Shown here in pieces: positions 11,842 through 43,869 of a stretch of DNA of 64,000 bases. The notes beneath the pieces are model-generated. The model saw only the letters and a list, made by a program, of their open reading frames with translations, searched no databases and was not told the DNA's origin. Positions within the stretch are counted from its first letter, which is position 1. The number at the start of each line of letters is the position of its first letter. The position numbers were made by a program, and so were the translations under genes. The DNA comes from Crossiella sp. CA-258035. GTDB lineage: Bacteria; Actinomycetota; Actinomycetes; Mycobacteriales; Pseudonocardiaceae. Location of the stretch: assembly GCF_030064675.1 (NCBI RefSeq), contig NZ_CP116413.1:8585501-8649500 (forward strand). The letters run 5' to 3'.

Positions 11842-12590
11842 GAGTAAGACCGCCTCTGGTCCGGCGGAGGAATTTCCGCGCCCTTGTACTCGACCGGGAT
11901 CCCGCCGAGCGGGTAGTCCTTGCGCTGGGGGTGGCCGTCCCAGTCGTCCGGCATGAGGATCCGGGTCAGCGCGGGGTGGCCGTCGTAGACGATGCCGAAC
12001 ATGTCCCAGGCCTCCCGCTCCTGCCAGTCCGCGGTCGGGTAGACCTCGACCACGCTGGGCACGTGCGGGTCCTCGATGTCCATGGCGACCTCGAGCCGGA
12101 TCCGGCGGCGGTAGGTCATCGAGGTCAGGTGGTAGACCGAGTGCAGGCGCTGCGGCACGTCCACGCCGTAGTCCACGCCGGAGACCGAGCTGCACAGCTC
12201 GAAGCGCAGGGCCTGGTCGTCGCGGAGCAGCCGGCACAGTTCGAGCAGGTGCTCGCGGCGGACGTAGAAGGTGATCTCGCCGCGGTCCACGGTGATCTGC
12301 TGGACCGCCTCGGCCGGGATGCCCTTCTCCGCCATGGCCATGGACAGCTCGTCGACGAACTCGTCGAACCAGCCGCCGTAGGGGCGCTCGCTGGGCGCGG
12401 GCGCGTAGGCGGGCAGGCGCAGGCCGCCGAAACCGGAGGTGTCGCCGGAGCCGGAGACGTTGAACATGCCCTTGCGGTTCTTGCCGGCCACGACACCGCC
12501 AGCGGCGAGGTGCTCCTCGTGCTGGGCCTCGGTCATGTCCGCCGAGCTGTGGGCTTCGCCCTTGGGCTCGGGGAGGTTCGCGTCAGTCAC
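11838..12590 (-). CDS. nuoC: NADH-quinone oxidoreductase subunit C (30 kDa)
   Basis: Peripheral-arm subunit that packs against NuoD. The signature region [23 protein letters not shown] is near the C-terminus, followed by the [19 protein letters not shown] motif. 250 residues, with an N-terminal extension of about 60 residues (acidic, Gly-rich) before the fold. It starts 6 bases after nuoB and overlaps nuoD by four bases. Confidence 0.97.
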
Positions 12591-12596
12591 AGCCGA

Positions 12597-13148
12597 TCAC
12601 TTCTTCTTGGCGTACCGGACGGAGGACGGGATCATCTCGGTGCGCGCGCCGCTGGCGGCCCGCAGCGCGGCCCGCTTGGGCCCGAGCGGCTCGTCCATGA
12701 TCTTGGCGTGGATCTTCAGGATCGCGTCCAGCAGCATCTCCGGCCGCGGCGGACAGCCGGGCAGGTACATGTCCACCGGCACGACGTGGTCGACGCCCTG
12801 GACCACCGCGTAGTTGTTGAACATGCCGCCGGAGGAGGCGCACACGCCCATCGCGAGCACCCAGCGCGGCTCGGGCATCTGGTCGTAGATCTGGCGCAGC
12901 ACCGGGGCCATCTTGTTGGTCACCCGGCCGGCCACGATCATCAGGTCGGCCTGGCGCGGGGAGGCGCGGAAGGCCTCCATGCCGAAGCGGCCGAGGTCGT
13001 AGCGCGGCGCGCCGGTGGTCATCATCTCGATCGCGCAGCAGGCCAGCCCGAAGGTGGCGGGCCACAGCGAGGACTTGCGCGACCAGTTGACCAGTTTCTC
13101 CACGCTGGCCAACAGAATCCCGTTGGGCAGCTTCTCCTCAAGACCCAT
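12597..13148 (-). CDS. nuoB: NADH-quinone oxidoreductase subunit B (N2 cluster)
   Basis: Carries the terminal 4Fe-4S cluster N2 that reduces quinone. Ligands are the tandem cysteines C37-C38 (LACCAIEMM), C103 (GVCASSGG) and C132 (PGCPPRPE). 183 residues, standard. It starts three bases after nuoA. Confidence 0.98.
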
Positions 13149-31055: not shown

Positions 31056-31403
31056 ATGGGTTTCAAAGCCGACTATCGGGTGATCGATGGCTACCGACAG
31101 CTTGTCCGACGAGCCTGGGACGACACTCAGGAGGCTCAAGGGTATGCGAACAAGTACTGCGATGTGCCGCGAGCAGATCAGGGGTGGCTGCAACTACTCG
31201 GCGATGCCAACGAAGCAGTCTCGAACAGCGTGCAGGACCTGCTAGGCAGGATCCACAGTGTGGTCAACTCAGCTCACGGTGAGCTGAGTGGAGTCGTGGA
31301 GCACTACAAGCTCACCGACACCGGAGCCGCCGCACGTGTCGACCAGACCTATCCGAAGGTCGACCGGATCACCGAGGGCAAGCTGGACAACGGAGGCAGG
31401 TGA
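31056..31403 (+). CDS. EspC-like / type VII secretion target family protein (locus A, gene 1)
   Basis: 115 residues, two long helices: KADYRVIDGYRQLVRRAWDDTQEAQGYANKYCD and an amphipathic second half (AVSNSVQDLLGRIHSVVNSAHGELSGVVEHYKLTDTGAA). This matches the layout of small EspC-type (DUF2580-like) partners that pair with WXG100 proteins. GGAGGG lies about seven bases before ATG 31056. The next gene starts inside or just after its stop. Confidence 0.7.
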   Translation: MGFKADYRVIDGYRQLVRRAWDDTQEAQGYANKYCDVPRADQGWLQLLGDANEAVSNSVQDLLGRIHSVVNSAHGELSGVVEHYKLTDTGAAARVDQTYPKVDRITEGKLDNGGR

Positions 31404-31405
31404 CC

Positions 31406-32146
31406 ATGTCCGTCCCGAGTGTCAGCATGGCAAGTGCCGCTACGCACCTGGTCCCTCCAGGAAAACCGGCCGAGTTCCAAGACCCCCTGGCCATCCTCAA
31501 CGCGATCTCGGACGGACTGAGCCCTTCCTGGTGGCTGAACGAGGTTTTCGCAGCCACTATCGGCTTCAATCCCATCCAGGAAGTCACCCAATGGGTCATC
31601 GGCGATTGGGAAAGTTTCGCACGCTGCGCGAAGGCTTACGAGTCACTCGGCAAATGCCTGAATTCAGTTGGAGACAGCCTGAAAGGCGGTCTCGGCACTC
31701 TTGATTCTGGTTGGCAGGGAAATGCCGCCGATGCCGCGCACGTCTACTTCCAAGACCTCGCCAAGGCCATCGGCGACAAGCAGCAGGATCTGCAGGAGCT
31801 GCACGACGAGTACATGAAGGCCGCCCGGGGGATCTGGGAGTTCGCCAAGGGGGCCGGCGACCTGATCAAAGAGATCCTTGACATGGCGATCATCGCCGCT
31901 GTCGAGATCGCGGCCGGAGCTGCGCTCAGCTGGACCGGAGTGGGCATGGCCATCGCATGGGCGCTGGCCGCGTTGGAGTGCGTTGCCATCGTCAAAGCAT
32001 GGGCCTCTGTGGTGGGGCTGATCAACAAAACTCAGATGATCGTGTACATGGCACACGGGTTCGGGATGCGGGTCGCCGGGACGCTCGGAAACCCGACGAG
32101 CATTCCGTTCCCGGAAACGACCTACAGCCACCCCGCCGTGAAGTGA
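31406..32146 (+). CDS. WXG100-like protein with C-terminal membrane-like region (locus A, gene 2)
   Basis: 246 residues. Residues 60-145 form a WXG100-type helical hairpin: WESFARCAKAYESLGKCLNSVGDSLK, turn GTLDSGWQGNAADAAHVYF (W-x-G), second helix. After about 150 come hydrophobic and Ala-rich helices (MAIIAAVEIAAGAAL, VGMAIAWALAALECVAIVKAW). GGAGG is nine bases before ATG 31406. A secreted or membrane-inserted type VII substrate is likely; no toxin domain is visible. Confidence 0.7.
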   Translation: MSVPSVSMASAATHLVPPGKPAEFQDPLAILNAISDGLSPSWWLNEVFAATIGFNPIQEVTQWVIGDWESFARCAKAYESLGKCLNSVGDSLKGGLGTLDSGWQGNAADAAHVYFQDLAKAIGDKQQDLQELHDEYMKAARGIWEFAKGAGDLIKEILDMAIIAAVEIAAGAALSWTGVGMAIAWALAALECVAIVKAWASVVGLINKTQMIVYMAHGFGMRVAGTLGNPTSIPFPETTYSHPAVK

Positions 32147-32160
32147 GACAAGGACATTTC

Positions 32161-32556
32161 ATGCCCGCCGAAGACGACCCGCTGCTCGACATCGCCAAGG
32201 ACCCGGCTCGCGCCAAGGCGTTGCGCCAGTCACTCGAACGGCTGGCCGCCGGGGCGGGAGGCTCAGCCCTGGCCGAGATGGCCAACGACGTGCTCACCGG
32301 CCGCAGCGACCTGCGCACCGCGGTCCTGTCTGGTACCTACGCGGAAGCGTTGAATTCCCGCGTGCAGCAGTTCAGCACGTGGTACCAGGGCCTGTCCGAG
32401 CAGGAGAAAGAGGAACAGACCGAGCGTGCCAGGGCTCACCTCGACCAACTGCGGAACGAGGATCAGCCACCTCCACCGCCAAGCCGGAACCGGACCCGCC
32501 CAGCGGATGACGGTGACGATGAACCGCCGAACAGCTTCCTCAGGGACGCCTGGTAG
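32161..32556 (+). CDS. Small acidic-tailed protein (locus A, gene 3)
   Basis: 131 residues. A helical core (PLLDIAKDPARAKALRQSLERLA to residue 105), a Pro stretch, an acidic linker, and the terminus DDGDDEPPNSFLRDAW. The locus B third protein ends DDDDDGGENIVLRHDSW, so both finish with acidic run, N-x-hydrophobic-L-R and a final W. The core may act as chaperone or adaptor for the WXG partner; this is inference. 14 bases separate it from gene 2. Coding GC returns toward the genome average. Confidence 0.7.
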   Translation: MPAEDDPLLDIAKDPARAKALRQSLERLAAGAGGSALAEMANDVLTGRSDLRTAVLSGTYAEALNSRVQQFSTWYQGLSEQEKEEQTERARAHLDQLRNEDQPPPPPSRNRTRPADDGDDEPPNSFLRDAW

Positions 32557-42209: not shown

Positions 42210-42674
42210 TCACCAGGAGTCGTGCCGCAGCACGATGTTCTCGCCGCCGTCGTCGTCATCGTCGTTGCGGCGCTGCTGGGACTGGCGGTGCGCCTCGACC
42301 ACCTCGTCCAGCGTGTGGCCCTCCTGGAACAGCTGGTAGGTCGTGCCCATCCGGCTCAGGTTCGGCTCCAGCGCCGCGCGCACGTCCGGGTCCGCGTACG
42401 CCCTGCCCTCCAGCACGTCCCGCCAGCTGAGCTCCCCGGCCTCGACTTTCCGTTGCAGCGCACGGAGTTCCGCGGGCGCGTCGGGCTTGGCGGCCTCGCG
42501 CTCGATGGCGCGGACGTCCTCCTCCGAGGCCACGGGCTCTTCGGCGGGGCGCAGGCTGTCCTGGAGCTCCTGGGCCGAGCGCAGCACCTCCTCCATGGCG
42601 TCCATGGAGGCGTCCAGCTCGGCCTCGGCGCGCCGGACCTCCGGGGTGCGCCAGTCCTGTTCGGGAGTGGTCAT
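42210..42674 (-). CDS. Small acidic-tailed protein (locus B, gene 3)
   Basis: 154 residues. Helical, charged (TPEVRRAEAELDASMDAMEEVLRSAQELQDSL), with a middle segment ELSWRDVLEGRAYADPDVRAALEPN, then a DDDDD run and the terminus GGENIVLRHDSW. The tail resembles that of the locus A third protein; the N-terminus resembles the truncated frame at 30687. Cytoplasmic, function unknown. Four-base overlap with gene 2. It ends three bases from the convergent menA stop. Confidence 0.72.
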   Translation of the reverse strand: MTTPEQDWRTPEVRRAEAELDASMDAMEEVLRSAQELQDSLRPAEEPVASEEDVRAIEREAAKPDAPAELRALQRKVEAGELSWRDVLEGRAYADPDVRAALEPNLSRMGTTYQLFQEGHTLDEVVEAHRQSQQRRNDDDDDGGENIVLRHDSW

Positions 42675-43546
42675 CGCGGGCTCGCTCCAGCCGGTTTGCG
42701 CAGGTGGTCGTTGAGGGCCTTGGCGTCCTTGCCGGTTTCCCGGCCGGCCGCCTGGGCTTCCTTGGCCGAGTCACCGATGCCCTTGGCGTCGTCGCGGATG
42801 CTGGTGGCCCCGTCCTTGATGTCGGTGGCGGACTGCTTGAGCTCCTTGCCCACCTCGATCGCGTCGCCCACGCTGCGCACGTCCTTGATCTTGGACAGCT
42901 GGGACGGCACCTGGGAGACGGTGTCGTGCAGCTGCTTGGCGGTCTCGATGATCCGCTTCACCGCCTCCACGATCTCGATGATCTTGCGGTAGATCTGGTA
43001 GGCGTCCCAGACCAGCTCGGCGGCCTTGATCCAGCCGTAGGCGGGGACCCAGGCCTTCTTGATCGCGTCGATGAGCTTGTTGACCAGGAACTTGATCAGG
43101 TCCAGTGCCTTCTGGCACAGCTTCTTCGCGCCCTCGGCGACCTTGTCGAAGCCCTTGGCGATCAGCTTGGCGACCTGGGCCTCGGCCAGCAGCCCGGCCT
43201 TCCACACCGCCTTGACGAAGACCTCGTGCGCCACCGCGGCCGCGCCCTCCCAGGTCTCCCGGACCTGGTCGACGTTGGCATTGAGGTTGGCGGACATGGC
43301 GTTCATCGCCTCGGCGCCACTGCGCCAGGCGTCACCGTTGTTCTGGATGCGCGTGTAGTCACCGGTGATCGGCATGATCACCTTCTGCACGATGCTCTCG
43401 CCGGTGACCTTGGTGAAGGCCCAGTCCACGGCCTGCACCTGCCAGCCCTGCTCCTTGATCAGCTCCTCGATCTTGGCCCCGGAGCTGTCCTCGGGCGCCT
43501 TGAGCAGGCCGCCGAGATCGGTCTTGTCCGCGTACCCGGTAGCCAT
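42671..43546 (-). CDS. WXG100-like protein with long helical C-terminus (locus B, gene 2)
   Basis: 291 residues. Residues 60-120 carry the WXG-like hairpin (NNGDAWRSGAEAMNAMSANLNANVDQVRETWEGAAAVAHEVF, W-x-G as WEG). Residues 130-200 are Lys/Ala helices including VNKLIDAIKKAWVPAYGWIKAAELVWDAYQIY; residues 210-291 are a charged coiled-coil-like tail (ATDIKDGATSIRDDAKGIGDSAKEA). The start ATG 43546 overlaps gene 1. Probably a type VII substrate or pore-like partner; no catalytic motif. Confidence 0.72.
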   Translation of the reverse strand: MATGYADKTDLGGLLKAPEDSSGAKIEELIKEQGWQVQAVDWAFTKVTGESIVQKVIMPITGDYTRIQNNGDAWRSGAEAMNAMSANLNANVDQVRETWEGAAAVAHEVFVKAVWKAGLLAEAQVAKLIAKGFDKVAEGAKKLCQKALDLIKFLVNKLIDAIKKAWVPAYGWIKAAELVWDAYQIYRKIIEIVEAVKRIIETAKQLHDTVSQVPSQLSKIKDVRSVGDAIEVGKELKQSATDIKDGATSIRDDAKGIGDSAKEAQAAGRETGKDAKALNDHLRKPAGASPR

Positions 43547-43869
43547 CAGGCGCGCACCTGCCCGACCTGGTCGTTGAGCCGGGCGAAGGTCAGCGCGACC
43601 TTCTGGTCGGTCTTCTCGTAGTCGGCGGCGATCTGGGCCATCCGCTCGGCCGAGCCGTGCATCCGGTCCTGCCCGAAGTCCAGCGCCAGGTCGTAGGCGC
43701 CGCGCACCAGGTCCACCCCCGGCTGCAGGATGGTGAGCAGGCCGGTGAAGCCGCTCTTGTCGCAGCCGTGCTCGTGCAGGTACTTCTTGACCTGGTCGAA
43801 CTGACCGGCCACGGTGCCGAGGTAGGCCGCGTAGGCCTTCAGCTCCTCGGTGTTGTGCCGCTGGACCAT
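43546..43869 (-). CDS. EspC-like / type VII secretion target family protein (locus B, gene 1)
   Basis: 107 residues, two-helix protein: NTEELKAYAAYLGTVAGQFDQVKKYL and a second long helix (AERMAQIAADYEKTDQKVALTFARLNDQV), the EspC/DUF2580-like layout. First gene of the locus B operon, followed by an ATGA overlap. No ecc core secretion genes lie nearby, so export would depend on a system elsewhere in the genome. Confidence 0.72.
   Translation of the reverse strand: MVQRHNTEELKAYAAYLGTVAGQFDQVKKYLHEHGCDKSGFTGLLTILQPGVDLVRGAYDLALDFGQDRMHGSAERMAQIAADYEKTDQKVALTFARLNDQVGQVRA

What the first reader, a model, noticed from the sequence alone, without database searches (positions are those of the whole stretch)
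31056..32556. Locus A: EspC-like + WXG100-like + acidic LR-x-W-tailed protein
Three genes in tight order encode a small two-helix EspC-like protein, a WXG-like protein with hydrophobic C-terminal helices, and a small protein with a Pro and acidic linker ending NSFLRDAW. The order and tail recur at 42210-43869 although overall sequences differ widely. The shared tail suggests a docking signal for a common partner, possibly the type VII machinery. I know of no named system with this composition.
Basis: partly seen in the sequence, partly recalled or inferred. Interest (0 to 1): 0.8.

Follow-up and report, generated by a model that had tools for sequence, protein, structure and literature searches.

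The report
Shared tail on type VII adaptors
Two small gene trios in this actinobacterium look like cargo sets for a protein export machine (type VII secretion), each with a helper protein whose tail (an acidic stretch, then a short greasy end) also occurs on unrelated helper proteins in relatives, which suggests one common docking tag.

Summary
Locus A (31056-32556 +) and locus B (42210-43869 -) are both EspC-like / WXG100 / acidic-tailed trios. The tailed proteins form one divergent family without a Pfam or NCBIfam name, seen mainly in Pseudonocardiaceae. 33 of 39 family genes lie downstream of an EspC-like frame. In two relatives the WXG slot holds RHS-nuclease toxins. In one distant genome the gene overlaps eccB in an ESX locus.

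The tail is modular. It also ends YbaB-family proteins placed before EspC, and a small protein beside an EccC-type ATPase. A 12-column motif trained on 66 tails, thresholded at 1% of 321 random genes, recovers 18 of 25 held-out YbaB proteins (16 of 23 without near-duplicates) and 7 of 7 of the third family, but 0 of 27 canonical and 0 of 7 EccD-adjacent YbaB. My first regex caught only 7 of those 25.

Best reading: dedicated cytosolic chaperone-adaptors for ESX cargo, counterparts of mycobacterial EspH/EspD, whose tail docks to a shared partner. Docking is untested and the partner unknown (EccC or EspG; EccA was not found here).

The parts
31056..31403 (+). Locus A, EspC-like small protein (P0001, 115 aa)
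   Evidence: Translation; matches the EspC-like profile (E 6.7e-5; 1.5e-5 in six frames), not a seed of it; no Pfam hit of its own at E<=1
31305..31319 (+). YKLTD, a YxxxD/E type VII export motif in the EspC-like protein
   Evidence: the motif is in 30 of 40 EspC-like proteins within the last 40 residues against 2 of 21 random small genes
31400..32146 (+). Locus A, WXG100-type partner with hydrophobic C-terminal stretches (P0002, 248 aa)
   Evidence: Pfam WXG100 27.6 bits, E 3.5e-6, cut-off 27.3
31712..31720 (+). WQG (WXG motif) of P0002
   Evidence: Sequence
32161..32556 (+). Locus A, tailed protein (P0003, 131 aa; family A)
   Evidence: Translation; matches in 10 of 60 genomes, own included, of which three (G027 a YbaB protein, G045, G047) are not family members
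32506..32553 (+). Acidic-hydrophobic C-terminal tail DDGDDEPPNSFLRDAW
43546..43869 (-). Locus B, EspC-like protein (P0006, 107 aa)
   Evidence: EspC-like profile 7.7e-32
43606..43620 (-). YEKTD, YxxxD/E motif of P0006
42671..43546 (-). Locus B, WXG100-type partner (P0005)
   Evidence: Pfam WXG100 27.3 bits, E 4.6e-6, cut-off 27.3
42210..42674 (-). Locus B, tailed protein (P0004, 154 aa; family B)
   Evidence: matches in 25 of 60 genomes, own included, of which at least three (G009, G039, G050) look like chance; also in named genomes of Crossiella, Actinoalloteichus, Goodfellowiella, Amycolatopsis, Actinokineospora and Actinosynnema
42213..42263 (-). Acidic-hydrophobic C-terminal tail DDDDDGGENIVLRHDSW

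Best explanation
Each trio encodes an ESX (type VIIa) cargo pair plus its dedicated cytosolic chaperone-adaptor. The EspC-like protein (YxxxD/E motif) and the WXG partner form the exported heterodimer; where the partner carries a toxin domain, the dimer carries the toxin. The third protein binds and stabilises the pair with its core. It then delivers it to the export machine by its flexible C-terminal tail: a linker, an acidic run and a short hydrophobic-Arg/Trp tip, read by one shared partner. The same tail is found on YbaB-family proteins, and on a third protein in an ESX core locus, which would do the same job for other cargo. Shown here: gene order, family, tail conservation, modularity, linkage to ESX genes. 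Inferred: complex formation, docking, export, and the identity of the partner.
For: Order EspC/WXG/tailed: 33 of 39 family genes have an EspC-like frame upstream (14 of the 33 loci supplied seeds of that profile). EspC and WXG parts lie in one reading frame in at least 7 loci, which predicts that they pair. The WXG slot holds RHS + Tox-HNH-EHHH toxins in L081 and L082, with a small gene between toxin and tailed gene. YxxxD/E in 30 of 40 EspC-like proteins; 19 of 28 match Pfam EspC at E<=0.01. One distant family gene lies between a WXG-like gene and eccB, followed by a mycosin-type protease. The tail ends three sequence-unrelated families in ESX-cargo or ESX-core loci; the A/B and YbaB families are unrelated without tails. 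A/B and YbaB genes alternate: 1 of 39 A/B genes has a YbaB gene on the same strand within 7 kb, 5.7 kb downstream. The genome has three EccC-type ATPases and two EccD genes in the stretches I read. EspH binds EspE and is needed for EspE/EspF export (PMC6107294, passages); EspD stabilises EspA and EspC, and EspL binds EspD (PMC6319747, passages).
Against: No interaction, secretion or structure evidence; structure prediction was off. The core fold is unknown and it is not YbaB by profile comparison, so the EspH analogy rests on position. Tailed genes without an EspC-like frame upstream exist (6 of 39), among them L051, L052, L054 beside menA-like genes. Three members outside the family Pseudonocardiaceae, one of them in an ESX locus, score below the tail threshold, so the core works without the tail there. 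On held-out YbaB proteins the original regex caught only 7 of 25, with 1 of 7 among those lacking EspC (P 0.65), and 0 of 5 new weak A/B matches. The motif also passes 4 of 7 held-out YbaB genes without EspC next, so the tie is to ESX-type YbaB in general rather than to EspC strictly. In four Crossiella copies of P0004 the tail is no better conserved than the rest.
Confidence: 0.55

Rival explanations
1. The tailed protein is a third exported subunit, and the tail is an export signal read directly by EccC, as the C-terminal tail of EsxB-like substrates is (recalled).
For: The tail is C-terminal and common to different cores. EspD, a functional counterpart, is found outside the cell (PMC6319747, passages).
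Against: The pair already carries WXG and YxxxD/E signals. YxxxD/E occurs in the last 45 residues of only 3 of 39 A/B and 1 of 25 operon YbaB proteins. EspH was seen to bind its substrate in the cytosol (PMC6107294, passages).
Confidence: 0.17
2. The tail acts in cis: it covers a sticky surface of the cognate WXG/EspC pair and has no shared receptor.
For: Most tailed genes are operon-linked to their pair.
Against: The acidic run and tip stay alike while partners and cores differ widely. Six of 39 tailed genes have no EspC-like frame upstream. In the third family the tail is 78% identical and the linker 31% over nine sequences.
Confidence: 0.15
3. The tail is a degradation tag or a generic solubility tail with no specific partner.
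For: Acidic composition alone lifts the motif score: shuffled held-out tails pass in 8.0 of 25 on average.
Against: 18 of 25 observed against a shuffled maximum of 13 in 300 rounds. 2 of 321 random genes have the acidic cluster and 0 have cluster and tip. Canonical and EccD-adjacent YbaB lack it (0 of 27, 0 of 7).
Confidence: 0.12
4. The third protein is an immunity protein or regulator, with the acidic tail as DNA mimic.
For: Small protein next to toxin-like genes in some loci; YbaB family members can bind DNA (PMC6107294, passages).
Against: In L081 and L082 another small gene lies between toxin and tailed gene, the usual immunity position (that gene has no Pfam match). The same family sits beside toxin and non-toxin WXG proteins alike. 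espE mRNA was not specifically changed by espH deletion (PMC6107294, passages).
Confidence: 0.08

Closest known systems
Mycobacterial ESX-1 EspE-EspF-EspH and EspA-EspC-EspD sets, with EspL
   Same: EspC-like protein + larger substrate + small chaperone; EspH binds EspE and is needed for EspE/EspF export; EspH (in part) and EspL are predicted YbaB-like (PMC6107294, PMC6319747, passages)
   Different: P0003 and P0004 match neither Pfam YbaB nor another family over its cut-off; the word acidic does not occur in either paper's main text; whether EspH, EspD or EspL carry such a tail was not examined
EspG (T7SSa) and EsaE (T7SSb) targeting chaperones
   Same: Cytosolic protein that binds the cargo's transport region and targets it to the machine (PMC10653861, passages)
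   Different: No Pfam match of P0003 or P0004 to EspG; EspG is about twice as long and can lie beside a tailed gene (directly before 4 of 55 tailed YbaB genes by a profile made from few sequences)
Lap1/Lap2 targeting factors of LXG toxins (T7SSb)
   Same: Small partners encoded beside a polymorphic toxin, one family with an FxxxD motif (PMC9600955, abstract)
   Different: Laps resemble the EspC-like partner here, not the tailed protein
SSB C-terminal acidic tip (recalled)
   Same: Disordered linker, acidic run, hydrophobic end, one tip for many partners
   Different: No homology claimed; a way-of-working comparison only

Membership tests
WXG100 (PF06013) | Profile match at the curated cut-off and a WXG motif | tested here: met
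   P0002 27.6 and P0005 27.3 bits against 27.3, borderline; WQG and WEG present
EspC (PF10824) | Pfam match of P0001 or P0006 themselves | tested here: not met
   No EspC match at E<=1; among 28 EspC-like proteins 19 match at E<=0.01
EspC-like ESX substrate | C-terminal YxxxD/E | tested here: met
   YKLTD and YEKTD; 30 of 40 relatives within the last 40 residues
EspC-like ESX substrate | EccC-dependent export | not testable with these tools
   Needs a mutant
YbaB/EbfC (PF02575), as for EspH/EspL | Profile similarity of the tailed A/B core | tested here: not met
   No YbaB match in Pfam; hhalign with A/B tails removed: pooled set 0.02-0.57, family A 0.13-0.42, family B 0.0017 over 35 residues to operon YbaB and 0.18-0.22 to the others
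EspD/EspH family (DUF2694; name and accession recalled) | Profile match | tested here: not met
   Not among Pfam hits at E<=1 for P0003 and P0004 or E<=0.05 for 19 members
EspD/EspH-type chaperone (function) | Binds and stabilises the cognate WXG substrate | not testable with these tools
   No interaction data
ESX operon component | Genetic linkage to ESX core genes | tested here: met
   One distant member lies between a WXG-like gene and eccB, with a mycosin-type protease and EccD nearby (no EccC was called in that 19.9-kb stretch); in the window itself no core gene is adjacent

The most novel reading that the evidence does not exclude
A single receptor in the Pseudonocardiaceae ESX machinery (EccC or the expanded EspG set) reads a portable C-terminal tag, acidic run plus hydrophobic-Arg/Trp tip. 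The tag has been attached to at least three unrelated chaperone families, so that any cargo operon, toxin operons included, can plug into type VII export by carrying a tagged adaptor. This would be a general adaptor code for type VIIa secretion.
Probability: 0.35. Interest if true: 0.82.

Novelty: new variant of a known kind. Interest (0 to 1): 0.62.

Why it matters
How a type VIIa machine picks its substrates is, to my knowledge, an open question: the YxxxD/E motif alone does not explain it (recalled). If the tail is a docking tag, it gives a short peptide that can be synthesised, pulled down and deleted, so the receptor step becomes directly testable. It would also let unannotated ESX cargo sets and toxins be found by the tail of their adaptor, and it connects the YbaB-like chaperones of ESX-1 with a family that has a different core.

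Tried and rejected
EccA, whose TPR domain seemed a good reader of an acidic C-terminus (recalled), was rejected as general receptor: no match in this genome at E<=1e-20, and 1 of 37 genomes over the cut-off. EspG as receptor is kept only as a candidate. Ten non-canonical YbaB genes from order-level genomes with 0-1 EspG had no tail, nor had L274 of G007 (no EspG) or L162 and L253 of G017 (2 EspG); but L273 and L289 of G005 (3 EspG) have it, the pattern is confounded with lineage, and an EspG gene lies directly before only 4 of 55 tailed YbaB genes (a lower bound, the profile came from two seeds and eight hits). PDB searches with P0003 and P0004 gave nothing credible. Pfam and NCBIfam scans of 19 family members gave scattered weak hits, each in one member. 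I did not fetch EspD, EspH or EspL of M. tuberculosis to compare tails.

Rows set aside before counts: five loci (L053, L057, L082 with broken or misplaced frames, L063 a 79-aa weak match, L075 a YbaB protein) were left out of the 39-member set. The EccD-adjacent YbaB set of 7 was in part assigned by hand. L094 and L111 were not analysed. 3 of 30 canonical YbaB loci had no called gene. L209 was not analysed, and the near-identical L201 and L202 were left out of the 7. Of the eight second-batch A/B loci, L257 (not a real match) and L263 (same gene as in the first set) were dropped; of the other six, 5 pass the motif, and of the five put to the regex none passes. In the WXG count (32 of 34) six rows are not the partner gene (L051, L052, L054, L063, L075, L080); the other 28 all have W-x-G.

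Full report
WHAT IS THERE. The window belongs to a 9.17-Mb single-contig genome. A genome of the same genus (G001) shares its contig length with Crossiella sp. S99.2, so the genus is most likely Crossiella, family Pseudonocardiaceae. Locus A is three genes on the plus strand with a 4-base overlap and a 14-base gap. Locus B, on the minus strand, has the same three-gene order. Both WXG-like proteins just reach the Pfam WXG100 cut-off; the EspC-like and tailed proteins have no Pfam or NCBIfam match beyond chance level.

A FAMILY, NOT A COINCIDENCE. P0003 has matches in 10 of 60 genomes and P0004 in 25 of 60, own genome included; three of the first and at least three of the second look like non-members. 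The convincing ones are in the same family of bacteria. Across the class, a profile of the B type matches 4 of 197 genomes, own included (only the 20 best candidates per genome were scored, and it does not find P0003). Profile comparison with the last 34 residues removed joins family A to B (E 7e-5), B to C (1e-17) and B to D (2e-14), while none of them joins YbaB convincingly (B against operon YbaB gives 0.0017 over 35 residues). Scans of 19 members found no shared Pfam or NCBIfam family.

GENE CONTEXT. Of 39 family genes, 33 have an EspC-like reading frame upstream (14 of these loci had supplied seeds of the profile). In at least seven loci the EspC-like part and the WXG part lie in one reading frame. 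In L081 and L082 the WXG protein is a toxin of 1,497 and 1,475 residues with RHS repeats and a Tox-HNH-EHHH nuclease domain, and a small gene separates it from the tailed gene. L080 has a 1,069-residue protein that by eye resembles P0005 at its start, with no Pfam match, in the same neighbourhood as locus B. In a distant actinobacterium (L233) the family gene lies in an ESX locus: EccD, EspC-like, WXG-like, family gene, EccB (overlapping it), mycosin-type protease; no EccC was called in that stretch. The EspC-like proteins carry YxxxD/E within the last 40 residues in 30 of 40 cases against 2 of 21 random small genes, and 19 of 28 match Pfam EspC, though P0001 and P0006 do not. In the stretches read, this genome has three EccC-type FtsK/SpoIIIE ATPases (the name EccC is my reading) and two EccD genes. 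So the trio is an ESX cargo set by position, motif and family.

THE TAIL IS MODULAR. A DNA pattern for D[DE]PPxxFLR, taken from family members and one YbaB-like hit, gave 29 matches in 26 of 200 family genomes; the same pattern read backwards gave 3. Of 27 matches analysed, 16 fall at a protein's C-terminus, and by eye all 16 lie beside EspC-like or WXG genes. Ten are A/B proteins (one, L113, the end of an interrupted frame) and six are the gene before EspC, YbaB-type (L093 by position only). Six of the 16 were already known; ten were new. The other 11 are internal or antisense matches. PF02575 (YbaB) has 15 matches in this genome. Of 40 non-canonical ones fetched from relatives and this genome, those placed before an EspC-like gene mostly end in the same kind of tail, while those beside EccD do not. 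A third protein, beside an EccC-type ATPase, an Hsp70-like gene and a WXG pair, ends in DFSQxxI[LM] plus one to three residues. It is found in 9 of 37 genomes, own included; all nine sequences compared have this ending, with the tail 78% identical, the linker 31% and the N-terminal part 51%. In the P0003 pair the tail is 79% identical, the linker 50%, the core 81%; in four P0004 copies there is no contrast.

STATISTICS, INCLUDING WHAT WENT AGAINST. With a criterion written after seeing the first tails (acidic cluster plus tip): A/B 24 of 39, YbaB before a small gene 15 of 25, YbaB elsewhere 4 of 8, YbaB beside EccD 0 of 7, canonical YbaB 0 of 27, other genes in the loci 4 of 825 (two of them really carriers), random genes 0 of 321. 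Frozen and applied to new YbaB loci it caught only 7 of 25 with EspC next and 1 of 7 without, not different, and 0 of 5 new weak A/B matches. A motif trained on the 66 non-redundant first-batch tails, with the threshold set at 1% of random genes, caught 18 of 25 of the held-out set (shuffled tails: mean 8.0, maximum 13 in 300), 4 of 7 YbaB without EspC next, 5 of 6 new A/B matches, 0 of 27 canonical, 0 of 7 EccD-adjacent, 7 of 7 of the third family, and 17 of 823 other genes. Dropping two held-out tails close to training ones leaves 16 of 23; the held-out genes come from the same genomes and are not fully independent. So the tail is real and ordered, but loose, and acidity contributes. In order-level genomes outside the family it was absent from 10 of 10 non-canonical YbaB genes, three of them with an EspC-like gene next; inside the family a further 4 of 6 had it.

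HOW IT MOST LIKELY WORKS. In Mycobacterium marinum EspH binds EspE and is needed for export of EspE and EspF, and part of EspH is predicted to resemble YbaB. In M. tuberculosis EspL, also predicted YbaB-like, binds EspD, which stabilises EspA and EspC (PMC6107294 and PMC6319747, passages). [quoted passage not shown] By position the tailed proteins are the counterparts. A/B and YbaB genes alternate in this role: within 7 kb on the same strand, only 1 of 39 A/B genes has a YbaB gene, 5.7 kb away. A tail shared by three unrelated families and set off by a variable linker is best read as a docking peptide for a common partner. Which partner is open. EccC is universal to such machines. EspG is abundant (11 in this genome) and co-varies with the tail, but this is confounded with lineage. 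EccA was not found here at the threshold used.

KNOWN OR NEW. Full-text searches for type VII secretion with YbaB and chaperone (3 papers), with WXG100 and Pseudonocardiaceae (1 paper), and with acidic, C-terminal tail, chaperone and EccC (2 papers) listed no paper whose title or abstract start describes this tail or these trios; other searches were for background. I read passages of three papers and the abstract of a fourth; the library lacks most subscription journals. The composition is a variant of a known kind; the family and the portable tail look undescribed within those limits.

Noticed in passing
L197:7704-8120 (-), own genome G000:C1:8472706-8473119: 138-aa protein beside an EccC-type ATPase, an Hsp70-like gene and a WXG pair, ending GDDEDFSQEQILY; third carrier of the tail, no Pfam family.
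   Followed up: yes
L066 (G011:C9) and L074 (G011:C11): Family A members with two tail-like stretches in one protein (for example DDEPPANVLRRG followed by DEDEDVQRSFVKRG).
   Followed up: no
L051, L052, L054 and second copies in L078 and L080: Solo or duplicated tailed genes; L051, L052 and L054 lie in the same menA-like / cysteine-synthase-like neighbourhood as locus B with no EspC-like frame found upstream.
   Followed up: partly
L192:12918-14015 (-) and 12540-12896 (-): WXG100 protein with a bacterial toxin 44 domain, followed by a tail-less YbaB gene and EccD, in this genome; by gene starts and lengths the same order recurs in L152-L154 (EccD not called in L152).
   Followed up: partly
L196:6955-15001 (own genome, G000:C1 from about 8511954): Tailed YbaB + EspC-like + a WXG protein of at least 2,389 residues running off the fetched stretch; possibly a very large ESX effector.
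   Followed up: no
window 31056-32556: Locus A has low coding scores in my gene caller compared with locus B, and P0003 has a match in only one of three same-genus genomes; it may be a recent arrival between the paa and men genes.
   Followed up: no
L082 tailed gene and L053: Family genes that look interrupted by a stop or frame change; described only, left out of the counts.
   Followed up: no
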